Positions 29,132-50,781 of a stretch of DNA of 64,000 nucleotides are shown here, piece after piece. Within the stretch, counting starts at the first letter, position 1. Every line of letters begins with the position of its first letter. The stretch comes from Eublepharis macularius (lineage: Eukaryota > Chordata > Lepidosauria > Squamata > Eublepharidae): NCBI RefSeq assembly GCF_028583425.1, contig NC_072797.1:21238001-21302000 (forward strand), in the 5' to 3' direction. The position numbers were made by a program, and so were the translations under genes. A model generated the notes under the pieces. The model was not told the origin of the DNA and made no database searches. It was given only the letters and a program-made list of their open reading frames with translations.

Positions 29132-29375
29132 TTCAGTCTTGTCTGGGGTTCAATTTCAATTTGTTATTTTCCAGCCATTTCATCATGGCTGTCAGGCAGC
29201 GATCTAGGATTTCTACTGCATCCTGTGGGGAGCTGGATAGCGAGATAATAGAGTTGGGTGTCATCTGCATATTGCTGACATCCAATTCTGTAACTGTGAA
29301 TAAGTTCTCCTATGTTTTACATAGAGGTTGAATAAAAACAGTGTTTCATACCTGTAACTGTTGTTCATCTAGGTC

Positions 29376-29563
29376 TTCCATGCAGTAACACATGGGACTG
29401 CGCACGCACAGGCCTGCCGACTTCAGAGATTTTTACAGCTCAGAACCACTAGGGGGCGCTCCCGCCTCTCAGTGCGCATGCACAGCCATCTTCCTGCCGA
29501 AAACGGCTCCTAAGAGGCGGGGCGCCCCCGACATACCCTCAGTCCTCTTTCGCCACCGACTGC
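29376..29563 (+). repeat. DIRS inverted terminal repeat, left
   Basis: It pairs with 50583-50775 in inverse orientation: 'acatgggactgcgcacgcac', 'aaccactagggggcgctccc', 'aaaacggctcctaagaggcg' and 'gcgcccccgacataccctca' all have near-identical reverse complements at the right end. The outermost 29340-29375 is unique to this end. Confidence 0.92.
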
Positions 29564-29603
29564 AAGGTAAGTACCAAGAGAATTAGCGGGGAAGGAGGGA
29601 GGG

Positions 29604-29698
29604 CATGTGTTACTGCACAGAAGACCTAGATGAACAACAGTTACAGGTATGAAACACTGTTTTTCATCGACGGTCTTCCTGTGCAGTCCCACATGGGA
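29604..29698 (-). repeat. DIRS internal complementary region
   Basis: Bases 29604-29661 are the reverse complement of the left terminus (29337 onward). Bases 29662-29698 are the reverse complement of the extreme right terminus (50745-50781). They meet at 'cactgtttttcatcg', which preserves the order expected of a circular junction. This organisation is diagnostic of DIRS1-like elements, where it serves as template for completing the ends. Confidence 0.9.
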
Positions 29699-29719
29699 GA
29701 TTACATAGCTAAATACCTG

Positions 29720-29943
29720 GGTGGTAGGTAAGAACGTCCCATCACAGGAAGATGGATTGCAGGACCGCCGTGCCACCATCACTTCCTTCCTGTCCATCAC
29801 GTCCAGAGCATAGTGTCTAACGAAGGTGTCCGCAGAAGCCCAGGTCGCCGCTTTACAGATGTCTTGCAGAGGAACGCCTCTCAGGAGCGCTGCAGAAGTT
29901 GCCTGCGACCTAGTGGAGTGAGCATGCACCTCCAACGGACAAG
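29720..29943 (-). pseudogene. DIRS tyrosine recombinase, C-terminal part
   Basis: The frame encodes the recombinase catalytic C-terminus: an H-S-T-R motif (residues near 29911-29922), a hydrophobic helix with L-L-R-G-V, a W-A-S block, and the nucleophile region R-H-Y, as in DIRS recombinases. The upstream part of the same gene lies at 45515-46560; the retrovirus inserted between them. The reading frame would be continuous across the empty site. The end of the protein is uncertain because the frame runs on into the internal complementary region. Confidence 0.88.
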
Positions 29944-29947
29944 GTAG
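29944..29947. repeat. Retroviral target-site duplication GTAG, left copy
   Basis: GTAG precedes the left LTR and recurs at 45511-45514 after the right LTR. Four bases is the duplication size of gammaretrovirus-type integrases. Confidence 0.95.
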
Positions 29948-31384
29948 TGTTACCAGAACTGCTCTTTTATTATAATGGGGAATTAGCTGTAGCAGTCTGT
30001 AACTATTAATATTAAGCGAGGATCATAACCTATGTTTACGGAGGTCCCGATCCCAGACACTCTAGTGAAAAAGAGGCAGACAAGGAGTAAGGTCCAAACA
30101 CGTGTATTGAGTGTAGCGTAAGCCTAGCTTGCACAATCATACAAAGAACATACAAGGTCTAAGAAATATAGAGTAAGAAATACAGAGACGTTCGCATTAG
30201 CGGGTTCCCAACGATGATAAGGGAAATACTCACAATCCTGGAGCAAAGCAGAGACACAGCAGCGAGGGTGGCCCAATGCCAGCACTGGGACCACAGACGG
30301 ACAGCAAGGAGGTCTGGATAGGGAATGGCCTGAGCCACGGGCAGCAAGGGGGGGGGTCTGGATAGGGAATGGCCTGAGCACCGAGTGGTCTGGGAGACCA
30401 GCTTAAATACCCCAAAACGTACCCTGGGGCTGGTGCTGTACTTGGTGGTTCTCACAGATTAAAACAAAGGTTCTAATGGGCTACTGAATGGCTTGGATGG
30501 GCCACTTTGGTAATCAGATTGTGATAAGTGACACCTCAGGAAGAGGGGACAAAAGAGGGAGGGGGAAATCCAAGTGGGCTGAAAGGATGTTCCAGCGGAC
30601 AGGGCTTGTCCTGATGTCATCAGCTTCTGGAATGCGGAGGTTTCTTTGAGATGCATTCTCTAAGTGCTTGGGATGGTCGGCACTTAGTTCCTTCTCCAGG
30701 GCGGCTCCTAAGATATGCAGAGCGGGGCGAGGTATTCTCGCTGCGGACGTGGTGTGCCCGCTTCGCCGAAATGGCTTCCCAAAGTAGTCTTTTCCTCTGG
30801 GTCTTCTGGGTGCCTGAGAACATGGATGCCGGCTGGGCATAGCTGGGGCTGGATAGCAGGCTGCCCGGTAGCGAGGGCAAGCTCGGGGACCGGCCCGCGG
30901 GAGGCTCCAGGCGGGAACTGACCAGGGAGCGCCTAGCCAGGCTCGCTGGAGGTTTCCCCGGCAGGCGCCCGGCTGCTAGCAGCGGCTTGGGCCCATGTGA
31001 GGCAGGCTTCCATGGAGGCAGCGGGAACAACACTTTAAAACACAGTCCAAAGCAGGGAACAGGCACGGTCCGTGGCAGATGGCAATGCAGGCACGGGGCA
31101 CACTTGTAGCAAAGTCCAAACACACACTGGGAAGTCCAGATACAGGTCGGGGCAGGGCTGCCCAGAAAGAGAGTCCTTTGTGCAGTTAGCCAAACATGGA
31201 GTCAGTAAACTACACAGTCTATTACAGCAGCAGGGTACTTGACACGCAGGCAGGAAACTGACACGTGTATCAGAACACACACGTGCAAAGCAGTTTTTGG
31301 TGCAGCAATAAAACAGCAACGCAGGAAACTTTAACACAGTTCATAGCAGGCTTCAAAGCAGGGGAGGGGGCCTACTTGGCAACA
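29948..31384 (-). repeat. Retroviral 3' LTR (1,437 bp)
   Basis: On the minus strand it runs TGTTGCC to GGTAACA. It is identical in length to the other LTR and differs only at 30049, 30245 and 30971, all transitions. A TATA-like TATTTAAG lies near 30402-30409. An AATAAA lies at 29966-29971, only 18 bases from the LTR end, implying a long R and a very short U5. A 48-base-scale duplication containing 'gtctggatagggaatggcct' is at about 30300-30378. A 167-residue frame inside has no recognisable features. Confidence 0.96.
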
Positions 31385-31396
31385 ATTCCCCCCCTC
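31385..31396 (-). promoter_or_regulatory. Polypurine tract
   Basis: On the minus strand GAGGGGGGGAAT abuts the 3' LTR, the position of the plus-strand DNA primer in retroviral reverse transcription. Confidence 0.85.
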
Positions 31397-31639
31397 GGAG
31401 ACCCCGGGACGTCAGGCGCGCGGGTCTCCGAACTTGGCTTCAAAGGCGAGGTGGTCAGCAATGTCCGGTGGTCGAGCTTCGAGCGAAGAAGGAGTGGGAA
31501 GGGAAGGGGGAGGAGGTGTCACTCAAAAATTTAGCTTGGAGAACCACCTAACCGAATAAGTGCAATTTAGATCAGCCAATGGGCTGCAGGTCTCTGGGTT
31601 CACACCAGGGGGTGTGCTAAGTGCAATTGTCAGAATAAA

Positions 31640-32330
31640 TAGTAATAATTCATAGCAATAGTAATTCATAGTAATAGGCAGCAATGATCAATTCATGCAT
31701 ATAAATAGCAATAATTCATAATTGTGTACATTGATTAATTCATAATTGAAGGTAATTCATACGGAATTCATGATGGGTTAAAAGCACTAAAAACCAGGAG
31801 CAATTAATATACATGGATCAATTCATAGATAGTTAAAATCATAAATACATAGGATTAAAAGCAGGGATAATTCATACAGGGTAAAGTGAAATGTGCAAGC
31901 ATGGCATAATTCATTGAGGGTAGGCTAATTCATAACTGGTTAAAATCACAAATACATAGATACATAGGGTTTAAAATGATAATTCAGGAAGTTAAAACCA
32001 ATTTCATAGATGATAGCAGCAATAGTAAAAACAAGTGCGGAGAAATAATTCATGGGGGGTAAGCGGCGGAAGGGCTCATGGGGGCAGAAAAATAAACTCT
32101 GCGATTAAAAACCAAATCAATATGGCTGGATTAAAAATCAAATTCATAGACTAGAACTGCCTCGGCGGAGGGAGTCGGGTTAAGAAGGCAGCTCAAAAGG
32201 TTAAAACCAAATTCATCGGGATAAAGTTCATGGGCGCACTTGCAGTAGATAGAGGGAGGGACTAGTTCGGGGCTAAATTCATGGGAGTTAAAATTCATAA
32301 GAAGCAATGGCAAGAAATTCATAAGACCAT
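31640..32330 (-). repeat. AT-rich array of ATTCAT motifs
   Basis: The env-LTR gap holds roughly seventeen copies of 'attcat' on the plus strand (ATGAAT in viral RNA sense), mostly as 'aattcata', scattered over about 690 bases with irregular spacing and accompanied by 'ggttaaaa'-like strings. It is noncoding by eye. Possible roles are RNA-processing or export signals, but this is inference. Confidence 0.8.
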
Positions 32331-32747
32331 AGAGTAACAAAGATCACAGACGGCTCAGTCTGCAGTACAGCTGCTGGACTGGGTTGCATATATACAAGAA
32401 CAAGCAAACTTAGTTCGTGTGCTCCAAAACACACTTCCACCCCCCCTTGCTGTCTGCGTCAATCCGCAGAGCAGGGTCGGCAGGCGGCGAGAAGGGCTTC
32501 AGACACACAGTTCTAGTCCTCATGGAGGTGGCGCTGCTGGCGGTCGTTTGGAGACGGGCCGTGGGCTGGGAGGCAGAGTAATATGTCCCCCCCTAGTCCA
32601 CAAGAGGGCCTCGGAGCGGTGCCCGGCAGCAGAGCGTCCATGGGGCCGGTGCAGGATCCGTACACATAATAATAAACGTAATCATAGTTCATACCGGCAC
32701 AAGCAATAAAACAAACAAGGGTTAAAGGAGGGCGCCAAGAACAACCC

Positions 32748-35135
32748 TTAAGGCAGAAGAAGGTCGGGGTTATAGTGATCCAAGCGGTAAGACAGCTGGA
32801 GTTGCTGGAGCTGTCGGCGGCTCCAACAGCCCAAATAAAGCAGTGAGGCACACAACAAAACTTGGAAGGCCAAAATAACGATGATTGGATGCAAAGCCAA
32901 ATTGTAAATTCCAGTGGCAGTGGGGCTCCAGCCAAAGAGGGTCTCCCACCACGAATGCTCGCCGGTGGTCTTAATCCGCTGGGCAAGATCCAAAATTTCC
33001 TTGCCGTTGTGGGACACAACCAAAGCAGTGGTGTCCCCGTCCCTCTGGATGCTCTGGAGGGTGCGGTGGAGCTGCGGGTGGGCCAGGAGCTCATGGATTA
33101 GCTCCAGACCGATGCCGAGGGAGATGGGCTTCACATGTCGATAGATGGAGGGTGCCACCAGGATCTCTTCTTGGGTCCAGACCGGTACTGTGTAGGTGAA
33201 GTCGCAGGCTGCCACCGAAGACAGGTTACAGAAGCAGCGGTTGACTCCCGGGATCACGGGCTTCAGCTGGAACGAGTTCAAGACCACAAAATCGCAGGCC
33301 GTTCGCACGCAGGCACATCCTTTCCCAAGGTAGACCACAGCGGAGCTGTTCTCCCGGACGACCTCAAAAGAGCATTCGTTGAGGGCGTCGGCTTGCGGGG
33401 CTACACAGGGGTGATGAGGTGCAAAGGCTTGGTCTTGGCAAATGAAGCCGGTCTGGTCTCGATGCTGGCACCCTTGGAGGCTGACGAGCTGCCATCCGGT
33501 CGGGGTGAAGCGGGCCCAATGGTCGGGGTGGCGGGCGTAGAGGACTTCGGTGTCGCTGACTTGGAGTCCCAGAGGCACGACTGGATACACGTGGAATGAC
33601 TCGTGCGCACTGGCCGTTAATAAAAATAATTTAAGTTCCTGGGTGGTCGGTGAGAATGAGGAATTTACGAGAGACCACCAGGATTCAAGCTCCAGTTCTA
33701 TGGGTGACAATTTGGGCATAATCAATCTTTTAATTTCCAGGGGCAAATGCCCGTCCGTGGCTTGCCGAATTAGCCCCATGGCCACAGCCTGATTTAATTG
33801 TTGGGCTTGCATACATGCCATGGCTATTGACATGTTGCGTTCCAAAGACTGTGTTCCTTTGAGCAGCAGAGAAAAATCTCTTTCAATTTGACTCTCCCAG
33901 TTAACTAAAATGGAGCTGATCTCGTGTTGCCCATTTGAAATGGAATTTAGGGACTGCACCACCGGTTTACCTAAGTCAGAGATGCTAGTCGTGACATGGG
34001 CAAACTTATTAGCGAGAGTCTCAATGTTGACCGAATCCATGATTGCTAAGCCTCCGGCTGCAGGAGCAGTCCAGTCGGCAATGCTTCGTCTGGCACGCGA
34101 GAGAGAGGGGGAGGGATCGATCCACAGTTGTAGCCATGCATTCCAACCCTTGCTACCGGCCTCCAGATAGGGAGCGCACTGCGGCAGCCTCTGGGTTACA
34201 TTTAGCTCAGCTAAGTCGATGCGGATCTCTTTTAAAGACATTTGCGGGCGGACTAGAACTCTCTCTCGAATGTCAGTTTTCAAAACATGGGAGCCCACTA
34301 TATGCGTGCCGCCTTGGCTTAATTGTTCATTGCTGGCAATCAAAGGGTCAATTTGGATGGTGTGGGTCTCCTGGGTCCGGATCAGCAGGGAATAATTGCC
34401 TGGTTCGTGAGTCAAATTTACAAAGAGCAGCCCAAGCCGGTGAAATTTCTCTACTAGGGGCTTAGTTTGGCACTCGGGCGTCTGTTGGACCAGTATCCAA
34501 TCAGGTGGGCCATGTTTGGCTAGGTCTTCTCCTTTTACAATCCAGGTCAAGTTCTCCCAGCGCTCTATAGCAAAGGAGAGAACTGCGCCTGAAGGGGGCG
34601 TGATAGTGACTGATGCAGACTCAGTGGTAGTAGTGCCTAGTAGGATGGTCATTCTAAAGGGGTCTCCTGCCTTCCATACTGCGGCCGACACTAAAACAAC
34701 TTCACAGTATGGTCCGAAAGCCTCAGTGACAAATGGCGAGGTTTCGAAGTTGGCAGGGGTGGTATTTTTGTCTACCACCGGGACTGCGGTGGGGGCTGGC
34801 CTGATGCGGGGGAGAAACATACAGGGAATCGGAGCAAGTGGTGACACTGTGTCAGTAGGCGAGTAACATACTAATTCTTGGGACATGGTTTTGACTCCCA
34901 CACATAAAATAACAAGCTCTGGGGGTCGGATCCACTGCTCTTCACAACTGCGGAAGTTAGTGCGGTCCGTGGGGGTGGTCATATTAATCTGCTGCACAAC
35001 CTTGCAGACCATCATTTCATTTTCTGCCAGGGTATTAATACATCTCCAGTGGGGGTAGGGCATTAATTTGGACGGGCGTCCCTCTGTTAGGGTGCCTGCC
35101 AGTACGAGCAAACACAGAGTAGCCAGGTGCCTCAT
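32748..35135 (-). CDS. env: Retroviral Env polyprotein
   Basis: Envelope glycoprotein of the provirus, 795 residues from the Met at 35135. An in-frame Met at 35309 would add 58 residues but would place a poor signal ahead of a good one. A hydrophobic signal peptide (LATLCLLVLAGTL) follows the chosen start. A furin-type site RARR at about residues 347-350 (405-408 from the upstream Met) separates SU from a TM subunit of about 445 residues. TM has a hydrophobic N-terminal segment, long heptad-like helices, a cysteine-rich block and a membrane anchor near the C-terminus (IIVILAFQVLLCASLLYLG), followed by a short tail. No CX6CC motif is seen. Many N-X-S/T sites. The frame is intact. Confidence 0.88.
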   Translation of the reverse strand: MRHLATLCLLVLAGTLTEGRPSKLMPYPHWRCINTLAENEMMVCKVVQQINMTTPTDRTNFRSCEEQWIRPPELVILCVGVKTMSQELVCYSPTDTVSPLAPIPCMFLPRIRPAPTAVPVVDKNTTPANFETSPFVTEAFGPYCEVVLVSAAVWKAGDPFRMTILLGTTTTESASVTITPPSGAVLSFAIERWENLTWIVKGEDLAKHGPPDWILVQQTPECQTKPLVEKFHRLGLLFVNLTHEPGNYSLLIRTQETHTIQIDPLIASNEQLSQGGTHIVGSHVLKTDIRERVLVRPQMSLKEIRIDLAELNVTQRLPQCAPYLEAGSKGWNAWLQLWIDPSPSLSRARRSIADWTAPAAGGLAIMDSVNIETLANKFAHVTTSISDLGKPVVQSLNSISNGQHEISSILVNWESQIERDFSLLLKGTQSLERNMSIAMACMQAQQLNQAVAMGLIRQATDGHLPLEIKRLIMPKLSPIELELESWWSLVNSSFSPTTQELKLFLLTASAHESFHVYPVVPLGLQVSDTEVLYARHPDHWARFTPTGWQLVSLQGCQHRDQTGFICQDQAFAPHHPCVAPQADALNECSFEVVRENSSAVVYLGKGCACVRTACDFVVLNSFQLKPVIPGVNRCFCNLSSVAACDFTYTVPVWTQEEILVAPSIYRHVKPISLGIGLELIHELLAHPQLHRTLQSIQRDGDTTALVVSHNGKEILDLAQRIKTTGEHSWWETLFGWSPTATGIYNLALHPIIVILAFQVLLCASLLYLGCWSRRQLQQLQLSYRLDHYNPDLLLP

Positions 35136-35206
35136 CTCCTGGCCTTCCTTTTCCTTTTTGTGGCGAAAATATCCTGGGGAGACCTGCGGATATAAGTACA
35201 GGTTCC

Positions 35207-35250
35207 CTGAGTTTGTTGCAGCAAAAATAAAATAAAGGGGGAAAAAGGAG
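35207..35250 (-). promoter_or_regulatory. Candidate env splice acceptor
   Basis: On the minus strand a long pyrimidine-rich tract leads to AACTCAG with the intron ending at 35207, 71 bases before the preferred env start. A spliced env mRNA is normal for retroviruses. The donor was not located. Confidence 0.5.
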
Positions 35251-35309
35251 GGCGTATTTCTGCCAGCACTGTCTATTAGGTGGGGCTCGAACGAGAAGTC
35301 CCGGAGCAC

Positions 35310-36711
35310 TAAGCGAGCCTTCCAGCTTGTTGCTCTGGGGAACTCCTGTGCGAAGGTTTCTTTCTAAAGCATGTATATTTCAGGGGGGACGTCTTTGAGT
35401 CGGGCGAGGGTCGGCCGTACGTTAGGCGGGGTTATGCAGACTCGCCCCAGGGGTCCCTGGGTGCCTAGACTATGTGGCCTCCAGGTGCCCCTTGCTCGGC
35501 GGCGGGCTATTTTCATTTTGCGGGCTGAGAGCTATCGGTCCGGCTCGGCCTGGCCTTGCCGTTTTGAAAGGAAAAAAACTAGAGAGCGGTTTCCATTAAC
35601 TATAAGGGTTGCTGCAGACGGGGGCCCTCGCTTTAATTTTCAAAAATAGGCCTTCGTCATATATTTGCAGGACAACCAATTTTTGGGGGGGACTCCCTCA
35701 GGAGGCCCCATCTTCTAGTTAAAAGAAAAAAAAGATACACCGGGCAAAAAGGAAAAATACACTGAGCAAAAGAAAAATGCACTGAGCAAAAAGAAAAATA
35801 CACGGAGCAAGAAGCATGCGGGTGTGGGGTACTTTCGGGTTGCCCTCACTTGGAAGGCCTGGCAGGGCTTCATTATAACTTCAACATGTCTCCCCCCCTT
35901 CTTTTCCCTTATACGGTACGGGCAAGGGAAAAGATTACGTGGGGCGGGCGGCTGCTGGCGGGAAGGGCCGAAGTGGAGCCGAGGGCGCTCGGCGGCGTTT
36001 ATCGAAAAGCGGCGGAGGCGGCCGAGATCTGCCGGCGCCACTGGGTCTGGGTTATTCGGGGGTCATCTTGGCGCGGGGGATTCTGGCTATGTAAATGAGG
36101 CACGCTGCCCCTTGTGCGTAGCGAACGCACCTCAATAACATATTCCAGAGGTAACATATTTACAAAATACTGGCGGGTCTTTTACTTTTGCACTAAAGCG
36201 TACTGGCTGGTGGCGCCGTATAGCAACTCACCATGACGAATATGAACATTAGTAAAAGAGGGATGTTGGGCTCTCTGGGGGACCTTTTCCAGGGGAGGCA
36301 CGGCCCTCAAAGCCAAAGCCGACCATCATGCGAAAGCGTGGGTCTGGCAGGTGAGACCCCGAATCTACGTAGATGCGGGATCTTCACCAGCACGGCGGGT
36401 GATATATTTTCGAATACAGGGATCACCTTATTTGGTGATTCCACTATGTTCGAAAGAATGTATGCACCTCTGGGCTAACGCCTCTCCAACCACTTTCACA
36501 CACAGCAAATCTCTTTTGCCTGTGCAATTTTTTCCGAACACGCGGCTTAAAATCCAATTAAGATTCACTTTCGGTGGTGGTCCTATTTGGCTTTGGTTGC
36601 CGTGTCTTCTCCTAAGGGTCCCAACTGTGGGGCCCGCCTAATGAAGTTAAAGAATAGAACTGGAAAAACTTTTGACATTCACACCTATATCTACGTATTC
36701 TACTATTTCTT
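35310..36711 (-). other. Pol-env noncoding interval
   Basis: 1.4 kb between the pol stop and the upstream env Met, without a convincing frame in viral sense (longest 108 residues at 35715-36041, no recognisable motif). It contains the four-unit array at 35725-35815 and a GC-rich part at 35930-36090. Simple retroviruses usually overlap pol and env, so a gap of this size is unusual. Confidence 0.75.
35725..35815 (-). repeat. Four-copy tandem repeat of about 21 bp in pol-env gap
   Basis: Units of the form 'tacactgagcaaaagaaaaa' repeat four times with small changes (cgggcaaaaagg, ctgagcaaaag, ctgagcaaaaag, cggagcaagaag). In viral RNA sense this is a pyrimidine-rich, U-rich tract. Confidence 0.85.
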
Positions 36712-39700
36712 TTATACTAAAGCTACAAAGGTCTGGTCTAAGGGGACACAGGGTATCTCTGGCCCAGGGTGGAGGGATATCTGGCGAATCACAGGGCAGA
36801 GGGGGGCTGGGCTGGTGGCGGTTCCCCCAGGGTCATACACAGGAGGGGCGGTTTGCAGCGGCTTCCCTTTCCATTCTTTTAATTGAGAGGCGTGAAAGTA
36901 TTTTAGCCAAGTGCCTCCGGTCCTTCTCTGGATAGCTACCTGATAGACGGCTGGGGAGACTCTTTTTGTGATGGGGACTGGGCCTTGCCATTTGGCTGCT
37001 AGTGAGTGTGCCTTTTGCGAAAACTTCCTGTACAGAACGAGCTGTCCTTCCTCCCACTGCCTGGGGTTCCTGACCCATCCTAGTTTACGGTCCATATCCT
37101 TCTGAGCTGTGCCCAACTTCTGGGCCACTTGCATGTGGACGGCGTGTATGGATGAGAGCAGGTCTTGGACCCAAGCGTCATTAATCACTACGGGCTGCAT
37201 ATCAGAAGGGAGCTGCGTATCTAGCCAGAAGGCTTCCGGGAGCTGCATTCTTCGCCCTGTCATTACCATATGGGGTGTGAGCCCATGAACTGCGGTAGTG
37301 CCTCTAATGGCCATTAGAATTATGGGGAGTTTTTCATCCCAGTCTCTCCTGGAGGAGCGAACCATCTTGCGGAGAGCCTCCTTGAGGGTCCGGTTGGTTC
37401 TTTCTATGGCGCCTGAAGCTTGAGGGTGGCCGGCTATGTGGAAACGTTGCTGGATGCCCAGTGCTTTACAAAGTTCCTGTGTGACTTCTCCGATGAAGTG
37501 TGACCCTAAATCAGAGTCCATGACTCTTACAATACCCCATCTTGAGAAAACATTGTTGAATAGTAGTTTGGCTGTGGTGGCTGCATTGTTGCGCTTGCAC
37601 GGAAACGCTTCGACCCATTTGCTAAAAGGGTCTATGACAGTGAGACAGTAGCGATTGCCGCGAGCAGTGGGGGGAAGGGGGCCGATAAAGTCAATCTGTA
37701 TGCGAGCCCAGGGTCCGTCAATTCTCTGATGCTGGAGGGGAGCTCTAGGTCCGGTGGGGTCTGCATTGACCATAGCACAGGACAGACAGTTGTCTACCCA
37801 TTGCGCTACTTCGGTGCGCATGCCAGGCCACCAACCAACCTCTTTTACCCTTTCCAGAGTCAGGTCCTTGCCTCGGTGTCCCTGCTCGTGGACGAACTGA
37901 ATTAGGTCGGCCCTAACTTCCAATGGCACTACCCAGTGGCGTTCGCCGGCTGTATCTACTGCCCAAACTATGCCTTCCTCTTCTCTGATCATGAGTCTCC
38001 CTGTCTGATCCCTTCCTGCGGCTAGGAGGTCAGTTATTTCTGGGTCAGATAGCTGCAGTTGTGCTAGATCTAGTGTTCCTGCGGTTCCCTGGGCTTGGCT
38101 GCGGGCTTGTGCCCGGGTGGTGACAGGGCGGAGGGGACAATCGGTGGCTGGTTCCGGTAGGGGAGCATTTTCAGTGGCGGCTGCCTTGGCTGCAAGGTCT
38201 GCCTGGTCATTCCAATAAGCGGTCTCTGAATTTGTCTTCTGGTGTCCCTTGACATGGGTCACCTGCGTTGGGCCTGAGCGGGACTGAAGGAGTGCTGCTA
38301 CTTGCTGCCATAGCTGTAGGTGGGCTACGGGTTTCCCATCACTAGCTCTCCACCCCTGATTCTGCCACACCGGGAGCCAGACTGTGGCGGCTTTGGCCGT
38401 CCAATCCGAGTCTGTGTAAATGGCAAGTGGGCTTTCTGGGGGCTCAAACTCGAGCACTGCCAGAAGCGCTTGCACCTCAGCCGCTTGGCTGGAATGGGGG
38501 CGGGCTGGACCTTTGAGGGTATGGGCGTCGCTCACTCGCACTGCGCCGTAGCCTGTCTGAGGGGAGCCTCCAACGTGAAAGGAGGAGCCATCACAGAACC
38601 AGCACGTGAAGCCGTTCTGTCGGGCTTCCTCTAGCGGGACCCCCCAAGTGACTGGCCAGACAACCTGCGGTGGCGGGTCCAGGGGGCACTCGTGCTCGGT
38701 CCCGGTTACTAACAGGCCATAGGGGGCTGGTGGCTCGGTGGTCTCCTTTTTAAACTCTACTCCGCGGTTGACCAGGGCCAGGGTCCACTGTGCTATGCGG
38801 GCGTTTGAGACTTGTCCGTCTTGTATCTTGCCAGACAGAATATATTTGAGGGGCGTGTGAGTGGTTTGAACTATCGTACGTGAACCTCCTATGATAAATT
38901 CCCAATGGGTCAGACTCCAAACTAGGGCAAGGCATGTCTTCTCGCATGGGCTAAACTTAGCTTCTACTGCGGTTAGGTTGCGAGAGGCATAGGCTACTAC
39001 TCTAGCGGTTCCCGCTTGCTGCTGGGTGAGCGTGGCTCCTATGCTCTTGTCTGATACTGCTAACTGGATAAAGAATGGCTGAGTGACATCTGGATGGGCT
39101 AGGGCCGGGGCTGCGGCCAGGCTGCGCTTTAGCTCGGCTAAGGCTGTCTGTTGCTCCGGTCCCCACTCCCAGGGAGTGTTCTTCTTGAGGAGAGCATAAA
39201 GGGGGCGAGCTTTGTCTGCAAAGGACTCGATGAAGTCTCGGGAAAAGTTAAAAGTTCCTAGAAGGGCTCTGAGGGAGGGGACATCGGTGGGTGCAGGCAG
39301 CTTGGAAATGACCTCCATTCGCTGGGCGTCCGGGGTGCGACCCTCGGGTCCCAGGGTCAGACCCAGGTACTTGACGCTGGTCTGAACCAATTGGGCCTTT
39401 TCCCTGCTTGCCTTGAACCCAGTCTCGCGGAGGAGTTCCAGGACTTCCCTGGTGATTTGGCGGGCTAATTCTTCCGTGGGGGCGTGGACTAAAATGTCAT
39501 CCACGTAGCTCAGTACGTGGGGCCTCGAGGAGGGTTGGAGGTGTTCCCACATCTGAACTACATGGGCATGACAAATACTGGGGCTGGAGTGGAATCCCTG
39601 GGGTGTCCGTTTGAATGCGTATTGCTGGCCGCGGAAAGTGAACGCGAACTTGTACCAGCAAGACTCATGCAGCCGGATGGAATGGAAGGCGTTGGCCAGG

Positions 39701-40524
39701 TCTATGACCGAGTAGAACCGGGACCCAGCGGCAATGGCCGTTAGGATCTCATTATACTTGGCCACAACCGGGGCAACTGGAGGGGTGGTGGCATTCAGGG
39801 CACGGAAGTCGACCGTCATTCTCCAGGTCACTCCATCTGCTTTCAGAACTGGCCACAATGGGGCGTTGCAGATGGACTGCATCGGGAGTATGACGTCCCA
39901 CTCAAGGAGTCCTTCTATAGTCTTGGCTATCCCTGCCTCAGCTTCTGCTGGGTACTTGTACTGTCTTTGGGGAGGGGGGTCCTTTCCTTCTATCAGGACG
40001 CAGGCGCCCTTCACTATCCCACACTCGGCTTTGTCTGTCACCCACACTTCGGGAAAGTCCTGAACCCAGGGGTCTCCTGTGATGGGGGCGAGAGGAAGGG
40101 GGGCCTTAAGGGCTGCACATCGATGGACTGCATTAACAAAGTCTGGGCCTCCCGGGATGCGCCACAGGAGCCCGTTTGCTAAGTCAATGGTCAGTCCCTC
40201 GGCTCGGAAGAACGGCATGCCCAAAAGTCCATCATCTTCTCCCCGGTTTGCGCATGCCGAAATCCGGGTGGCCAGGTTCCCAACGGAGAGGGGGATATCC
40301 TGCCAGACCGGGGATTCCTGCATGCCGCCTCCAAAACCGGCGAGCTGCATGGTTGTGGGGGTCTGGGTGCCCTTTGCAACTAAGGTGGGCCGGAGTATAT
40401 TAAGTGAGGCTCCGGTATCTATGAGGAGAGTGGCAGGCTTCTTCTTTTCCCCGGGAGTCCCGATCCCTGCCTTTACTGTCGGTCTCCCCCATGTGTCCAG
40501 CTTTAGTTTGGCAACTATGCCCAT
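36712..40524 (-). CDS. pol: Retroviral Pol (protease, RT, RNase H, integrase)
   Basis: 1,270 residues from the first Met, but probably made as a Gag-Pol readthrough product because the frame is that of gag with a single TAG and nine codons between. Domains in order: aspartic protease with LLIDTGAS at 33-40; reverse transcriptase about 185-400 with YVDD at 340-343; connection; RNase H about 640-785 with acidic residues in FCDGSS, the E of QAAE, YTDSDW and NDQAD; integrase with H879/H883/C913/C916 zinc finger, D945, D1005 and E1041 (exact D,D35E spacing), and a GPY/F-like segment near 1180. All catalytic residues are present and the frame is uninterrupted. No dUTPase domain was recognised. Confidence 0.95.
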   Translation of the reverse strand: MGIVAKLKLDTWGRPTVKAGIGTPGEKKKPATLLIDTGASLNILRPTLVAKGTQTPTTMQLAGFGGGMQESPVWQDIPLSVGNLATRISACANRGEDDGLLGMPFFRAEGLTIDLANGLLWRIPGGPDFVNAVHRCAALKAPLPLAPITGDPWVQDFPEVWVTDKAECGIVKGACVLIEGKDPPPQRQYKYPAEAEAGIAKTIEGLLEWDVILPMQSICNAPLWPVLKADGVTWRMTVDFRALNATTPPVAPVVAKYNEILTAIAAGSRFYSVIDLANAFHSIRLHESCWYKFAFTFRGQQYAFKRTPQGFHSSPSICHAHVVQMWEHLQPSSRPHVLSYVDDILVHAPTEELARQITREVLELLRETGFKASREKAQLVQTSVKYLGLTLGPEGRTPDAQRMEVISKLPAPTDVPSLRALLGTFNFSRDFIESFADKARPLYALLKKNTPWEWGPEQQTALAELKRSLAAAPALAHPDVTQPFFIQLAVSDKSIGATLTQQQAGTARVVAYASRNLTAVEAKFSPCEKTCLALVWSLTHWEFIIGGSRTIVQTTHTPLKYILSGKIQDGQVSNARIAQWTLALVNRGVEFKKETTEPPAPYGLLVTGTEHECPLDPPPQVVWPVTWGVPLEEARQNGFTCWFCDGSSFHVGGSPQTGYGAVRVSDAHTLKGPARPHSSQAAEVQALLAVLEFEPPESPLAIYTDSDWTAKAATVWLPVWQNQGWRASDGKPVAHLQLWQQVAALLQSRSGPTQVTHVKGHQKTNSETAYWNDQADLAAKAAATENAPLPEPATDCPLRPVTTRAQARSQAQGTAGTLDLAQLQLSDPEITDLLAAGRDQTGRLMIREEEGIVWAVDTAGERHWVVPLEVRADLIQFVHEQGHRGKDLTLERVKEVGWWPGMRTEVAQWVDNCLSCAMVNADPTGPRAPLQHQRIDGPWARIQIDFIGPLPPTARGNRYCLTVIDPFSKWVEAFPCKRNNAATTAKLLFNNVFSRWGIVRVMDSDLGSHFIGEVTQELCKALGIQQRFHIAGHPQASGAIERTNRTLKEALRKMVRSSRRDWDEKLPIILMAIRGTTAVHGLTPHMVMTGRRMQLPEAFWLDTQLPSDMQPVVINDAWVQDLLSSIHAVHMQVAQKLGTAQKDMDRKLGWVRNPRQWEEGQLVLYRKFSQKAHSLAAKWQGPVPITKRVSPAVYQVAIQRRTGGTWLKYFHASQLKEWKGKPLQTAPPVYDPGGTATSPAPLCPVIRQISLHPGPEIPCVPLDQTFVALV

Positions 40525-40551
40525 GGAAGGAGACTGGGACTCGGGGCAACC

Positions 40552-40554
40552 CTA
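40552..40554 (-). promoter_or_regulatory. gag-pol readthrough stop TAG
   Basis: gag ends in TAG, followed by GG. pol is in the same frame with no other stop until 36712. This is the arrangement of retroviruses that make Gag-Pol by stop-codon suppression. A downstream pseudoknot was not tested. Confidence 0.8.
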
Positions 40555-42582
40555 TTCTGGTCCTGCACCCTGATCGGTGGAAGCGGCGCTTCCTCTAAAG
40601 GGGTTGTTGGGGCTCGGGCGTTCCCGGACCGCAGCTATCGGGGGACTCGAGAAGGGAGGGTCTGGCGGCAAAGGGGGCGCCGACGGAGGTGCTGGGGGCT
40701 GCTGCTGGTCTTCCCACTCCATGATCGCCTTCATTAGAACGGACGTGGGCTTTCCGTCGAAGAGCTCCATGTTCGCTCCAATGTTTTTGAGGCGCATCCA
40801 AAGTTCCCAACGGAGGGAGTCCCTGGACTGGGGCGTGCTGCCGCGGTCCCGGTAGCCCTCGTGGTCGCCCTGCGATGCTCCCCAAGCGTTAGACTGATCT
40901 GGAGGCGGGTAGACCTGATGGTTGTACGGGTGCGATGCTCGCGAGTGAGAAGGGGCTATGGGTACATCCTGTAGTCGGGGCTCGTGGGGTCCTTGCTGGG
41001 AGGAGGAACTGTAACTCGGGGCGGGCGCAAAGGAGACTCCCGGGCGGTAGTCCCTTGGTCCTCTTCCCCGGTTAAAGCTACTGCTCCTTCCCCTCAGGAT
41101 TCCTCCCCTTGCCTCGGAGTACGGGCTGCGTCCCTGTGGTCGGTACTGAGAGTGGGGGCCATGGTTGGCATAGGTGACTGCACTTATCGGCTCGCTCTCC
41201 TTCCTACGAGAGGCCGGGGGTTTCACATGGCGGATGGCGCCGGTTTCTCGCAACAGGCCAGCAATGCTTCTGATGCGAGCTTCCAGGTCTCCCCATGAGA
41301 TGCTCCCAGGCTCCACTCCTGCTAGCGCTAGGCGGGTGGTACTATTGAGACCATCTAAGACTGCTCTCCTGAATTCTAATTCGTCAAAGTCGGGTACATC
41401 GCTTGCATCTAGGTCCACTTCGTCTGCCAGCTCGGCGAGAAGCTGCTTTCTGGCTAAATATGCCTCTGGGTCCTCTCCGGGCTTTTGGGACTCTGCAATG
41501 TACAGGGCTTTTAAGCTTTTGGTGGGCCACAGGAATGCACAAATTTCTTTAATTGCTCCGTACTGACTGCGGGTGGCTAACCTTCGGTTAGAGATATAGG
41601 CATTCAGGGCCGAGACTATTTCAGGGGCGGCGCATTGGCGGGCCAGCTGGGCTACATCGGAACCACTAGCGGAAGGCTGAGAGGTGGTCACATGGGTGAA
41701 CCACTGGATGGCCGTGTCTCGGTTTAGGGGTCCCATGCGATCTGCTATGGCTTGGAGCTCATCGGGCCTCCAATTGCGGGTTTCCTTAACGACCCGGTCT
41801 GTTTTCCTGCCATCCTCGTCCATGGATACAATTTCCTTGGTGGCTATTGGGTGGAGGGGCTGTGGGGCTTCTTCGGGTTGGGACGACTGAGATGCCCAGC
41901 TATCCTTACTGTCTTCTGGGAGGGCCAAGAGGGCTGAGGGGTGCACGGCGGAAATTACGGCCTGTTGCATCCCCAAGTGTCGCTTCAGGGCCTCTAGCTC
42001 CCTCTTACAAGCTGAATGATCCGCGGCTGTGGTTTTAGACTGGTTGTGGTCCGCCATGAACCGGGCGGCATGGGTGAGCTTAGTAATCTCCTCTTGTCCC
42101 TCCGTTAATGCGTGCTCAGCCATATCGGCACGAGCGGTGGCCGCTTCAGCCTTGTGTTGAGCATCCTGGAGGGCGGTAGTTAATCCTTGCTTCTCTAATA
42201 TGAAATTGACGCGTTCGGCGCGCCACTCAACTGCCTTTTCCTCATGTTCTCTCTCCTGGTCGGTTAGCTTGGTCCTGAGAGTCTGGATTTCTAGGCGCAA
42301 GGCGTCCTGCTCTCGTTTCGACCTCTCCTCTAACTCCTCCTGTGCTGTTTGCAACTTGCTAATTAGGGACACGCTGTCCTGCAGGGCAGTGAAAAGTGCC
42401 CAGGCTCCATACCTGTCTTTTTTACTTGACCTAGGTTTTTCCTTGTCACAGAAATCTTGGAAGGCACTTCTGACTATCTGGAGCGGGTCAGGTCCCTTGA
42501 AGGAACCGGCTTCCCAAGGGCAATCTCCCTTCTTAACTAGCCACTTCTCCAAGCGGGGCACGGTGGGGTTTGCCCGGTACAT
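40555..42582 (-). CDS. gag: Retroviral Gag polyprotein
   Basis: 676 residues of structural polyprotein. Residues about 70-205 form a long charged heptad-rich coiled coil. Residues about 255-445 look like a capsid, with the segment QKPGEDPEAYLARKQ near 366-380 where the major-homology-like region and C-terminal domain would lie. Residues about 451-515 are basic and Gly/Arg-rich (GRSPYS, RGGILRGRS, NRGRGPR) in place of a nucleocapsid; there is no CCHC zinc knuckle anywhere. The C-terminal tail is proline-rich and contains PSAP at 633-636, a late-budding-type motif. No N-terminal glycine for myristoylation. Start MYRANP, preceded by an A-rich context; the frame is intact to TAG. Confidence 0.9.
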
Positions 42583-44049
42583 TTTTATTTTTTTAGTTTA
42601 AGGCTGATCTCGGGGGAGGTTAAAGAGTAGATCAGCGACACCAGGGGTGGGGCGATTAAAGCTGCTCAAGGGTTTTAACAACTTCTTCCTCTCTATGTTC
42701 CTTTTGGGAGGTTTATCCTTCCCTCAGGTCCTCAAGGGTTTTTACCAGGGGGTTTTAAGGTTCTACTTTTAGGTTCAAAGGGTATTTTTAAGGGTTCTAC
42801 ACTCGGCTCTTCTCCACCGGGGGAGAAGGAAAATTCCTATTCCCGTTTCAAGCTTGCCTACAAGCCACGGGACCAGGAAAAGTTTACTGGCTCAGAGGGT
42901 GCTCTCAAGCTCTCTAAGCCCAAGAACCAAAAACGCTCAGTGTTTCCAAGCCTCTGCTCAGAAGCTAAAGCTCAGGGGTCTCCCAAGCCTATACTCGGAA
43001 AACCACAGCTCAGGGGTCTCCCAAGCCTATGCGCTCAGAAAACCACAGCTCAGGGGTCTCCCAAGCCTATGCGCTCAGAAAACCAAAAAGTGTCTCCAAA
43101 CCTCTGCCTGGAAACTGCAACTAAGGGGGTCTCCCAAGCCTCTGCTCAGGCAACCAGAAATGCTCCCAAGCCTCTGCTCAGAAGCCAAAATGCTCTCAGG
43201 CTCTCTGTCCAAGAACTAAACTCAAAGTGTCCCCAGGCCTCGTGCTCAGAGACAAACGATTAAACTGTCTCCAAGCCACGACCAAAAGACTAAATGCGCT
43301 CAAGGACTGCCTCTGCAAGTCCCCAAGCAAAAGTGCCCAGGAGTAAAGCTTACTGTACTCCCAAGCGGAAAAAGCGCTCAAGAGTTCAAACAACTCCCAA
43401 GCAAAAATGCGCCCACGAGTCTGACTTAAAACTCGCAAGTGGAAAGGCGCCCAAGAGTCTACCTTAAAACTCTTAAGCACTTTGCGGCCGGCTGCCGCGG
43501 GGCTTCAGGAACCTGGCTTCAGATTCCCAAAGCTAAACTGACTGAACAACCAAACGGACTAACGATCCCTTCACGTTTCCTCCGGAGCGGGGATTGAAGC
43601 CTAAGTGCTGGCAGGAACGGGGGTTTGGACGGACTTAGGAGAGACGGGGGAGGGCGGAAAAGAGTTTTATATGTGCTGCTTCAGGATGCATATATATATC
43701 TATAGAGCCTACTTCTGGGATCCCACCCACATAGACGCGTTTAGGCGGCCCGGAAGGTGGCCAGGAACTTCACCAGTTCAGAGGTCCTCACCCACAGTAC
43801 ACCGGTTATAACGGCTGGAGGGCCTCGCGGTGCACCACAAAAGGCAAGTAGTCCAAAGCTGGCTGAAGGAGGAAATGGGGGAAAAGCCAACCCACAAGAT
43901 AGAAATGCTCACTAGAGCCACACACACTCACACTTTTAATTCCCTGAGCTAAATTGCGCTCTTTACACTGAGGTCTGGAAAATTTTCCTCTAAGTCAGTT
44001 CGCTGAAGACACGCGTGTCGACTCACGTGTATTCACACGAACCGGGTTA
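42583..44049 (-). other. Retroviral 5' leader
   Basis: About 1.47 kb between the PBS and gag. It should include the packaging signal and a splice donor, neither of which I can fix. Much of it is the repeat array at 42930-43480. A 94-residue minus-strand frame at 43196-43480 is made from repeat sequence and is not called. Confidence 0.8.
42930..43480 (-). repeat. 40-bp tandem repeats in viral leader
   Basis: Two perfect 40-bp units lie at 43001-43040 and 43041-43080 (each contains 'cagctcaggggtctcccaag' and 'cctatgcgctcag'). They are flanked on both sides by diverged partial units built on 'ctcccaagcctctgctcag' and 'gcgctcaagag'. Confidence 0.9.
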
Positions 44050-44067
44050 TGCCCGCATTCTCCACCA
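44050..44067 (-). promoter_or_regulatory. Primer-binding site, tRNA-Ala type
   Basis: On the minus strand TGGTGGAGAATGCGGGCA matches, from memory, the 3' end of a vertebrate tRNA-Ala (AGC type) including CCA. It begins six bases after the 5' LTR, a wider gap than the 0-3 bases usual in gammaretroviruses. Confidence 0.72.
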
Positions 44068-44073
44068 GTAAAC

Positions 44074-45510
44074 TGTTACCAGAACTGCTCTTTTATTATA
44101 ATGGGGAATTAGCTGTAGCAGTCTGTAACTATTAATATTAAGCGAGGATCATAACCTATGTTTACGGAGGTCCCAATCCCAGACACTCTAGTGAAAAAGA
44201 GGCAGACAAGGAGTAAGGTCCAAACACGTGTATTGAGTGTAGCGTAAGCCTAGCTTGCACAATCATACAAAGAACATACAAGGTCTAAGAAATATAGAGT
44301 AAGAAATACAGAGACGTTCGCATTAGCGGGTTCCCAACGATGATAAGGGAAATACTCACAATCCTGGAGCGAAGCAGAGACACAGCAGCGAGGGTGGCCC
44401 AATGCCAGCACTGGGACCACAGACGGACAGCAAGGAGGTCTGGATAGGGAATGGCCTGAGCCACGGGCAGCAAGGGGGGGGGTCTGGATAGGGAATGGCC
44501 TGAGCACCGAGTGGTCTGGGAGACCAGCTTAAATACCCCAAAACGTACCCTGGGGCTGGTGCTGTACTTGGTGGTTCTCACAGATTAAAACAAAGGTTCT
44601 AATGGGCTACTGAATGGCTTGGATGGGCCACTTTGGTAATCAGATTGTGATAAGTGACACCTCAGGAAGAGGGGACAAAAGAGGGAGGGGGAAATCCAAG
44701 TGGGCTGAAAGGATGTTCCAGCGGACAGGGCTTGTCCTGATGTCATCAGCTTCTGGAATGCGGAGGTTTCTTTGAGATGCATTCTCTAAGTGCTTGGGAT
44801 GGTCGGCACTTAGTTCCTTCTCCAGGGCGGCTCCTAAGATATGCAGAGCGGGGCGAGGTATTCTCGCTGCGGACGTGGTGTGCCCGCTTCGCCGAAATGG
44901 CTTCCCAAAGTAGTCTTTTCCTCTGGGTCTTCTGGGTGCCTGAGAACATGGATGCCGGCTGGGCATAGCTGGGGCTGGATAGCAGGCTGCCCGGTAGCGA
45001 GGGCAAGCTCGGGGACCGGCCCGCGGGAGGCTCCAGGCGGGAACTGACCAGGGAGCGCCTAGCCAGGCTCGCTGGAGGTTTCCCCGGCAGGCGCCCAGCT
45101 GCTAGCAGCGGCTTGGGCCCATGTGAGGCAGGCTTCCATGGAGGCAGCGGGAACAACACTTTAAAACACAGTCCAAAGCAGGGAACAGGCACGGTCCGTG
45201 GCAGATGGCAATGCAGGCACGGGGCACACTTGTAGCAAAGTCCAAACACACACTGGGAAGTCCAGATACAGGTCGGGGCAGGGCTGCCCAGAAAGAGAGT
45301 CCTTTGTGCAGTTAGCCAAACATGGAGTCAGTAAACTACACAGTCTATTACAGCAGCAGGGTACTTGACACGCAGGCAGGAAACTGACACGTGTATCAGA
45401 ACACACACGTGCAAAGCAGTTTTTGGTGCAGCAATAAAACAGCAACGCAGGAAACTTTAACACAGTTCATAGCAGGCTTCAAAGCAGGGGAGGGGGCCTA
45501 CTTGGCAACA
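44074..45510 (-). repeat. Retroviral 5' LTR (1,437 bp)
   Basis: Same structure as the LTR at 29948-31384 with a constant offset of 14,126. Differences are at 44175, 44371 and 45097. The promoter TATA-like box lies near 44528-44535. The duplicated target GTAG follows at 45511-45514. Confidence 0.96.
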
Positions 45511-46126
45511 GTAGGTTAGCATATTTGTAACTCAACAAAATAGCTTGTACCATCCATCGAGCCACAGTTTGAGGATTGGCTTTCTTTGGGCCCGTAAAGC
45601 AAATAAACAGGTGAGAGTCCTTCCTAAATGGTTTCACCCTATCCAAATAAAACAAAAAAGCCCTCTGAACATCTAACGCATGAAGGGATCTCTCTGCTTC
45701 TGAAGAATAATCCTTGAAAAAGACAGGTAAAGAAATTTCTTGCGATAAATGAAATTTGGAAACCACTTTAGGTAAAAATTCTACTTTGGTTCTGAGAACC
45801 ACCTTATCAGGATGGATGTTCAAGTAGGGAACATCACATAATAGAGCCGCCAATTTGCCTACTCTCCTGGCAGATGTGACAGCTACTAAGAACGCTACCT
45901 TAAACGAAAGAAGATTCAAGGGACAAGTAGCTAAGGGTTTGAACAGTTTGGATATCAATTTGGTCAATACCAGGGGGAGGGACCATTGAAGCACCATCTC
46001 CCTTACCGGAGGAAACAAATTATTCAGTCCTTTCAAAAACAACTTAGATGTATAATGGGAAAAAACTGTCTTCCGATCCACCAGGGGGTGGAAAGCGGAA
46101 ATCGCAGATAAATAAACTTTTACAGA

Positions 46127-46375
46127 CGATGTATTGTCGAAGGCTTTCACGGCCGGAGAACGATGGTTGTGGGTTTTCTGGGCTGTATTGCCGTGGTCTT
46201 GGCATTGTAGTTCCTGACGTTTCGCCAGCAGCTGTGGCTGGCATCTTCAGAGGTGTACCACCAAAAGTCTTTTGGTGCTACACCTCTGAAGATGCCAGCC
46301 ACAGCTGCTGGCGAAACGTCAGGAACTACAATGCCAAGACCACAGCAATACAGCCCGGAAAACCCACAACAACCA
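46127..46375. mobile_element. Penelope-derived hairpin insertion
   Basis: A 249-bp insertion in the DIRS recombinase, flanked by TTTTACAGA at 46118-46126 and 46376-46384. Its two arms are near-perfect inverse copies of about 100 bp around a short centre at about 46260, and each arm matches the 3' region of the Penelope-like fragment at 5370-5478. The left arm is longer ('cgaaggctttcacggccgga' is unpaired). Inverted tail structures are common among Penelope-like insertions. Open frames across it are shadows. Confidence 0.8.
46218..46322. ncRNA. Paired candidate hammerhead ribozyme cores
   Basis: On the plus strand CTGAAGA (46286-46292), GCCAGC/GCTGGC stem II and GAAAC (46313-46317) reproduce the hammerhead core. 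The other arm carries the same on the minus strand (TCTTCAG 46244-46250, TTTC 46220-46223). The core is intact here, unlike the copy at 5383. Very short stem III motifs are reported for Penelope elements. Confidence 0.5.
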
Positions 46376-46554
46376 TTTTACAGAGGAGTTTGACAGTCCC
46401 AACTGCTTTAGTCCCCACAAAAATTCCAGAATTTCAGAAAGAGGGGAGGTCAATGGGTCCAATCCTCTATCCACACACCAATTAGAAAATCTATTCAATT
46501 TCAGGGAATACGACTGCCGAGTGGACAAGCGATGTGCATTCTGAAGCACATGCA

Positions 46555-48371: not shown

Positions 48372-48821
48372 CCAAACATCTGAGGTAATGGCAAGCCATT
48401 CAGCAAAAAAGAGAGCCTGTCCCCAAAATAGGGCTCAGGGCCCTGTAATTGTCAAAATTGTTTTAGAGAATGTCCCAGTTCCTTGGGTTGTTGTTGGTTG
48501 CTTCTCTGTCTACCCTTGTTGTTCTGCCTTCTCTTATGGAAGGTAGCTTGAGGGCTTTGGTAACAACACTGAGATTGAAACCCATACCCATAAGGGTGAA
48601 AGCGCTGTTGGCGATTCTTAACATAAGGCCGGTATTGCGCTCAAGTAGGCTGTTGTTGTTGATGCAGGACGCCGTAAGAGCAGGCTGTCAATCTGTCCTT
48701 CCATTTCTTGGACAAATATTCGTCTGTCCTGTCAGAAAACAAGTTCTGCCCTTCGAAGGGGAGGTCTTCCACCTTGACTCTGGTGTCTTGGGGTAAAGCG
48801 GTAGTTCTCAGCCACGTGAAT

Positions 48822-50485: not shown

Positions 50486-50582
50486 TTTTCTATCACACGT
50501 TGCTTAAACAAAGCTTTCTCAGACATCCTGGAAAAAACGAAAGACGCCAATCCAAGGAGTAGAGCTAGCCAAGAACCTCTCA

Positions 50583-50775
50583 AGTCGGCGGCAAAAGAGG
50601 AACTGAGGGTATGTCGGGGGCGCCCCGCCTCTTAGGAGCCGTTTTCGGCGGGAAGATAGCTGCGCATGCGCACTGAGAGGCAGGAGCGCCCCCTAGTGGT
50701 TCTGAGCTGTAAAAATCTCTGAAGTCAGCAGGCCTGCGCGTGCGCAGTCCCATGTGGGACTGCACAGGAAGACCG
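50583..50775 (-). repeat. DIRS inverted terminal repeat, right
   Basis: Inverse partner of 29376-29563, with about 90 percent or higher identity judged by eye. Differences are mostly CpG transitions. The element ends at 50781, followed by AAC and the LINE. Confidence 0.92.
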
Positions 50776-50781
50776 TCGATG

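What the first reader, a model, noticed from the sequence alone, without database searches (positions are those of the whole stretch)
29948..45510. Apparently intact, very young 15.6-kb reptilian endogenous retrovirus
gag, pol and env are each one open frame with catalytic motifs in place, and the LTRs differ by 3 transitions in 1,437 bases (about 0.2 percent). Such LTR identity means integration recent on an evolutionary scale; with a typical vertebrate neutral rate of about 1e-9 per site per year it would be about a million years, though the rate is assumed. Intact full-length retroviruses are rare in genomes. I do not recognise this lineage.
Basis: partly seen in the sequence, partly recalled or inferred. 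Interest (0 to 1): 0.92.

Follow-up and report, generated by a model that had tools for sequence, protein, structure and literature searches.

The report
Young intact OVEX1-type endogenous retrovirus
A complete, recently inserted retrovirus in an animal genome (probably a turtle or other reptile) appears to belong to the same lineage as OVEX1, a more than 100-million-year-old retrovirus relic that birds have kept.

Summary
29948-45510, minus strand, is one provirus: 1,437-bp LTRs with 3 differences, TG..CA ends, 4-bp target duplication, primer site, polypurine tract, and open gag, pol and env. It sits inside a DIRS-like element whose open frame continues across the joined empty site.

The lineage can be named. 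Of 59 pol hits, 12 (five with organism names, all birds) carry signatures published for chicken OVEX1. They are 41-45% identical to this pol, but 12 of 12 have lost two RT aspartates and the first integrase aspartate, all intact here. One of them, P0020, has an Env-like tail 34% identical over 561 aa to this Env. Gag has an OVEX1-like major homology region. In an RT tree of 42 rows the provirus and these 12 share a 23-row clade (98/98), apart from MLV-like, foamy and frog rows.

So this is an intact, young member of a known but little-known kind, and it supports the view that OVEX1's uncertain 'ORF3' is a true Env. Copy number, host and replication ability are untested.

The parts
29948..45510 (-). 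complete provirus, transcribed sense on the minus strand
44074..45510 (-). 5' LTR, 1437 bp, TGTTGCC...GTAACA; AATAAA at LTR position 1414
29948..31384 (-). 3' LTR, 1437 bp, 3 CpG transitions from the 5' LTR (LTR positions 414, 1140, 1336)
45511..45514 (-). target-site duplication CTAC, upstream copy
29944..29947 (-). target-site duplication CTAC, downstream copy
44050..44067 (-). primer binding site TGGTGGAGAATGCGGGCA, 6 bases after the LTR; its complement ends in CCA and looks like a tRNA-Ala 3' end (tRNA identity recalled, not tested)
42583..44049 (-). long leader, ATG-poor in the sense direction, with tandem repeats at 42969-43207
40552..42582 (-). gag, 676 aa, no zinc knuckle, no Pfam match
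41434..41493 (-). Gag major homology region, 10 of 20 residues as in chicken OVEX1
40552..40554 (-). amber gag stop followed by G, pol in the same frame (readthrough expected)
36712..40551 (-). pro-pol, 1279 aa
40204..40440 (-). aspartyl protease (LLIDTGAS); Pfam match below the curated cut-off
39352..39834 (-). reverse transcriptase core with YVDD
38176..38604 (-). RNase H
37423..37929 (-). integrase zinc-binding and core domains, D(X)59D(X)35E
36970..36990 (-). WQGPVPI, at the place where OVEX1 has WMGPVRV (called a degenerate GPY/F motif in print)
32748..35135 (-). env, 795 aa; no CX6CC or C..C motif; one RARR furin site; no Pfam match
34086..35135 (-). Env signal peptide and surface subunit (up to RARR)
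32751..34085 (-). Env transmembrane subunit
31386..31396 (-). polypurine tract GAGGGGGGGAA, one base before the 3' LTR

Best explanation
This is a single, recent germline integration of a retrovirus of the OVEX1 lineage. Shown: near-identical LTRs, TSD, PBS-like and PPT sequences, three open genes, and homology of pol and env to OVEX1-type proteins. Inferred from the anatomy: it is transcribed from the 5' LTR. Gag is translated by scanning through an ATG-poor leader. Pro-Pol is made by readthrough of the amber codon. Env is made from a spliced RNA, cut by furin at RARR, and mediates entry by a TM subunit without the CX6CC motif of gammaretroviruses. Birds' OVEX1 comes from the same lineage, with RT and integrase residues lost and open frames kept.
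For: Structure. Clean insertion: joining the flanks at the TSD gives a 389-codon frame across the site, 245 left of it and 144 right; three joins with other offsets give 256, 265 and 257, that is only about 11-20 codons right of it. Lineage: the pol search returned 59 proteins. Twelve of them (P0008, P0009, P0011-P0020) are 41-45% identical, and 12 of 12 carry W[ML]GPVR[VI]. The protease string MLIDTGASYSI is exact in 7, has one change in P0012 and P0018, and lies before the start of the other 3. Twelve of 12 lack RT D1 and D2 and have E for integrase D1, as PMC2717909 describes for chicken and zebra finch OVEX1. Five of the 12 have organism names, all birds. Env: P0020 tail 33.7% over 561 aa, E 6.6e-98. 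Gag MHR: score 52, reached by 0 of 5000 shuffles; best of 61 other proteins 29. Tree: 42 rows, 371 columns; window and the 12 in a 23-row clade, 98/98.
Against: Inside the 23-row clade the window groups with P0004-P0007 and is not the sister of the 12 OVEX1 rows, so it is kin, not the direct source. SpeV, CrocERV37-39, SnRV and lokiretrovirus sequences were not in the tree; 20 of the 59 pol hits were left out of it. The Env link to OVEX1 rests on one gene model. Gag found no homologue among 8,000 scored candidates. Readthrough, splicing and expression are not shown; no donor-like site within one mismatch of AGGTAAGT was found between window positions 44500 and 42583.
Confidence: 0.88

Rival explanations
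1. It is an ordinary gammaretrovirus-like (ERV1) provirus; OVEX1 has itself been called gammaretroviral (PMC5006616).
For: Best PDB hits are RT/RNase H p80 chains (E 6.7e-75), which I recall as murine leukaemia virus type; amber gag-pol in one frame; 4-bp TSD.
Against: No zinc knuckle; no CX6CC or C..C in Env; no Pfam family at E<=1 for Gag or Env; the MLV row falls in a separate starred clade.
Confidence: 0.05
2. It is a lokiretrovirus, with an Env related to fusion proteins of negative-strand RNA viruses.
For: Host range in print includes reptiles, and the Env is not of the usual retroviral type (PMC9040795, passages read).
Against: Env found no viral fusion protein among PDB sequences; 9 listed hits, all TolC-type channels, best E 0.31. 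Pol lies with OVEX1, which PMC2717909 places near SnRV, SpeV and spumaviruses.
Confidence: 0.03
3. It is a host-co-opted locus like OVEX1, kept by selection rather than recently inserted.
For: All three frames are open.
Against: LTRs 99.8% identical with a TSD inside another mobile element; catalytic residues intact.
Confidence: 0.02
4. The two LTRs belong to different copies joined by misassembly.
For: Young, high-copy families can be collapsed; read data were not available.
Against: Identical CTAC on both sides and a host element whose frame is open across the joined site.
Confidence: 0.02

Closest known systems
OVEX1 (birds; PMC2717909: sections 6, 8 part 1 and 14 read, plus passages)
   Same: gag amber codon then pol in one frame; Gag without zinc finger, with MHR; integrase zinc finger H(X)3H(X)29C(X)2C and triad spacing 59/35; GPV motif; large Env-like ORF3 without CWLC, CKS17 or CX6CC
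   Different: OVEX1 has no typical LTRs, lost RT and integrase residues, and is more than 100 My old; the window provirus has matching LTRs and the residues, and is young
SpeV of tuatara and CrocERV37-39 (PMC4299795: sections 4, 12 and 14 read)
   Same: reported to cluster with or resemble OVEX1; reptile hosts; envelopes reconstructed for CrocERV37-39
   Different: in 2009 only Pro and RT of SpeV were known (PMC2717909); not compared by sequence here
Snakehead retrovirus SnRV
   Same: per PMC2717909: coiled-coil, presumably non-myristylated Gag; amber readthrough
   Different: has one zinc finger and is a complex retrovirus; not compared by sequence here
ERV4 of crocodilians and turtles (PMC4299795)
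   Same: no zinc finger, env present, similar hosts
   Different: ERV4 typically has a 5-bp TSD; here 4 bp. The paper sets the OVEX1-like groups apart from ERV4 by RT tree; not compared by sequence here
XtERV-S of Xenopus tropicalis (PMC8278194: passages read)
   Same: intact young provirus of an otherwise old lineage
   Different: class III gag-pol with a class I Env, 8.0 kb, serine PBS, 5-bp TSD

Membership tests
OVEX1 lineage | RT groups with OVEX1 | tested here: met
   23-row clade 98/98 with 12 proteins taken as OVEX1
OVEX1 lineage | gag amber stop, pol in the same frame | tested here: met
OVEX1 lineage | Gag lacks zinc knuckle, has OVEX1-like MHR | tested here: met
OVEX1 lineage | Env homologous to ORF3, no CX6CC | tested here: met
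   via the single gene model P0020
OVEX1 lineage | one spliced env mRNA | not testable with these tools
   no transcript data
SpeV / CrocERV37-39 group | RT groups with SpeV | not tested
ERV4 | 5-bp TSD (typical, not constant, per PMC4299795) | tested here: not met
   4 bp
ERV4 | GPY/F motif or equivalent absent | tested here: inconclusive
   WQGPVPI present and SH3_Tf2-1 at E 0.00029, below its cut-off; print calls the OVEX1 form a degenerate remnant
ERV4 | zinc finger absent | tested here: met
ERV4 | pol groups with ERV4 | not tested
   no named ERV4 sequence in the tree
Gammaretrovirus | RT groups with MLV | tested here: not met
Gammaretrovirus | 1-2 zinc knuckles | tested here: not met
Gammaretrovirus | Env CX6CC and CWLC | tested here: not met
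Spumaretrovirus | RT groups with foamy virus | tested here: not met
   foamy row outside the 23-row clade; that row is a long branch
Lokiretrovirus | RT groups with lokiretroviruses | not tested
   no lokiretrovirus sequence obtained
Lokiretrovirus | Env similar to Mononegavirales fusion proteins | tested here: inconclusive
   no such hit by sequence in PDB; fold prediction unavailable

The most novel reading that the evidence does not exclude
The retrovirus lineage that gave birds OVEX1 more than 100 million years ago never died out: it has gone on infecting the germ lines of non-avian reptiles until about the last million years, and gag, pol and an unusual Env travelled together the whole time. 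OVEX1 ORF3 would then be the long-kept Env of a virus type that may still circulate.
Probability: 0.5. Interest if true: 0.72.

Novelty: new member of a known kind. Interest (0 to 1): 0.55.

Why it matters
OVEX1 is a conserved bird locus of retroviral origin, expressed most strongly in the ovary. Its third ORF was left as 'an envelope protein?' in 2009, with gag-pol and ORF3 perhaps from different viruses (PMC2717909), and was called a gammaretroviral env in 2016 (PMC5006616). An intact provirus with homologous pol and env in one unit, and a matching Gag MHR, supports a single origin and a real but non-gamma Env. It gives a reference for asking what birds kept and changed.

Tried and rejected
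Viral-contig relatives: four scans of viral contigs with pol, an Env alignment, Gag and a 9-row pol alignment gave no confirmed relative. Captured or accessory genes: 10 small frames, on both strands, from the non-coding stretches had no Pfam match at E<=0.1; not every frame was tried. RNA families at gathering threshold and tRNAs in the window: none. A second copy in the window: no DNA match; the only protein-level matches outside the provirus are weak RT ones at 47.5-48.4 kb, which I assign to the DIRS-like element. ERV4, gamma, foamy and lokiretrovirus filings: see the membership test. Literature: in the listings and passages I saw no paper describing an intact OVEX1-type provirus. The library is open-access only, and the supplement of PMC10435555, which may hold relatives, could not be read. 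PMC5006616 (passages read) already reports OVEX1 homologues by BLASTP in four reptiles, among them Pelodiscus.

Full report
What is there. The provirus lies on the minus strand at 29948-45510. Its LTRs align over 1,437 bases with three mismatches and no gaps. They begin TGTTGCC, end GTAACA, and are flanked by CTAC on both sides. Six bases after the 5' LTR is TGGTGGAGAATGCGGGCA, whose complement ends in CCA; I recall this as a tRNA-Ala 3' end, but no call tested it. One base before the 3' LTR is a purine tract.

Genes. Gag has 676 codons and no Pfam match at E<=1. It ends in TAG followed by G, and pol continues in the same frame for 1,279 codons with protease, RT, RNase H and integrase (the protease match is below its cut-off). 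Of 11 aligned catalytic or motif residues, 11 are intact. Env runs 795 codons from the first ATG of its frame, with one RARR site, a hydrophobic stretch at residue 751, ten N-glycosylation motifs, and neither C..C nor CX6CC.

Is it one real insertion? The neighbouring DNA on both sides belongs to another element. Inverted repeats at 29362-29561 and 50583-50785 are 92.6% identical, and RT similarity lies at about 47.6-48.4 kb. Joining the flanks with the TSD kept once gives a 389-codon frame, 245 codons left of the site and 144 right. Three joins with other offsets give 256, 265 and 257, so only about 11-20 right of it. I read this as a DIRS-like element with a tyrosine recombinase gene; that name is recalled, and Pfam matched neither half. 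The provirus therefore landed in another mobile element, and the TSD fits one integration.

Age. At 1e-9 per site per year three differences give 1.04 My (95% 0.22-3.05). All three are C/T at CpG, which cover 100 of 1,437 sites (chance of all three there 0.0003). The 1,337 other sites have none, giving a 95% upper limit of 1.12 My at that rate, 2.24 My at half and 0.56 My at double. The rate is assumed.

What lineage? The pol search scored 7,999 candidates and returned 59 proteins. The best are P0004 (79%), P0005 (71%), P0006 (52%) and P0007 from Pelodiscus sinensis (64% over 62% of the query). P0003, the only Env hit (56%), and P0004 are both listed on contigs of 8,143 bases, so pol and env are probably on one contig there too; the contig itself was not seen. 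Twelve further proteins (P0008, P0009, P0011-P0020) are 41-45% identical. Five have organism names, all birds (ostrich, hummingbird, crane, stork, antbird), and four of those five are annotated 'NYNRIN-like'. PMC2717909 prints for chicken OVEX1 the protease site MLIDTGASYSIL, the C-terminal WMGPVRV, the loss of two of three RT aspartates, and an integrase triad E(X)59D(X)35E. Among the 12, W[ML]GPVR[VI] is in 12, exactly WMGPVRV in 9. MLIDTGASYSI is exact in 7, has one change in 2, and lies before the start of 3. Both RT aspartates are lost and integrase D1 is E in 12. I therefore take them as OVEX1.

Env and Gag. P0020 (1,828 aa, Willisornis vidua) continues past OVEX1 pol into a stretch 33.7% identical over 561 aa to the window's Env (E 6.6e-98), including an RARR site and shared cysteines. 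This is one gene model. The 20-residue OVEX1 MHR finds ESQKPGEDPEAYLARKQLLA in Gag, 10 of 20 identical, above 5,000 of 5,000 shuffles. Gag had no hit among 8,000 scored candidates.

Tree. I used 39 of the 59 pol hits (20 weaker ones left out), the window and two PDB RT stretches: 42 rows, 371 columns. The window groups with P0004 (100/94), then P0005 (100/100) and Pelodiscus (97/91). A 23-row clade (98/98) holds it and the 12 OVEX1 rows. The MLV stretch, a Thamnophis protein and four fish rows form another clade (100/99); three rows including two frogs, and the foamy row, lie outside both. The join of the OVEX1 rows with Pelusios, P0010 and a second Pelodiscus protein is weak (82/61). The foamy row is a long branch of odd composition.

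In print. PMC4299795 (sections 4, 12, 14) reports that three crocodilian groups, CrocERV37-39, cluster with Ovex1 and resemble SpeV of tuatara, with reconstructed envelopes. PMC5006616 (passages) reports OVEX1 homologues in many birds and four reptiles and calls it gammaretroviral. PMC10435555 (section 6) shows that young intact ERVs are not rare among vertebrates. So the kind is known; what appears new, within the searches named, is an intact, recently integrated member with all three genes.

Mechanism. Shown: parts and homology. Inferred from known retroviruses: readthrough at the amber, splicing for env, furin cleavage, tRNA priming. The leader is ATG-poor in the sense direction: 3 against 11.1 in shuffles (0 of 500 as low), while CAT is not depleted (12 against 7.5). 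None of 304 flank pieces of that length has 3 or fewer. Against specificity: AAG is depleted too (21 against 37.6), and the LTR is also somewhat ATG-poor (12 against 19.8). The pol-env gap and 3' region are not (16 against 17.5; 36 against 29.9). This fits ribosome scanning to gag but does not prove it. A strict match found no splice donor.

Limits. The host is not identified. Genome copy number was not obtainable. Nothing here shows that the provirus is expressed or can replicate.

Noticed in passing
29362-29947 and 45511-50785: DIRS-like retrotransposon (inverted repeats 92.6% alike, RT similarity, RNase H-like frame, interrupted recombinase-like frame) that contains the provirus.
   Followed up: partly
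42583-44073: The 1.5-kb leader has only 3 ATG in the sense direction (one in the primer site), none in the last 1,100 bases before gag; AAG is also depleted.
   Followed up: partly
42969-43207: Tandem repeats in the leader: a 40-base unit three times and a 32-base unit 2.4 times.
   Followed up: no
31385-32747 and 35136-36711: Long non-coding stretches downstream of env and between pol and env, without recognised genes in the frames tried; acceptor-like sites at 35762, 35782 and 35955.
   Followed up: partly
58141-58713, minus strand: Exon-like frame with the 3-PAP (myotubularin-associated protein) domain, E 3.1e-39, the likely neighbouring host gene.
   Followed up: no
proteins P0026, P0027, P0034: Proteins (Lathamus, Haemorhous and one unnamed) branching inside the 23-row clade; P0026 and P0027 keep the RT aspartates but not the aligned RNase H and integrase residues.
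   Followed up: no
44068-44073: Six bases separate the 5' LTR from the primer binding site, more than I recall as usual.
   Followed up: no
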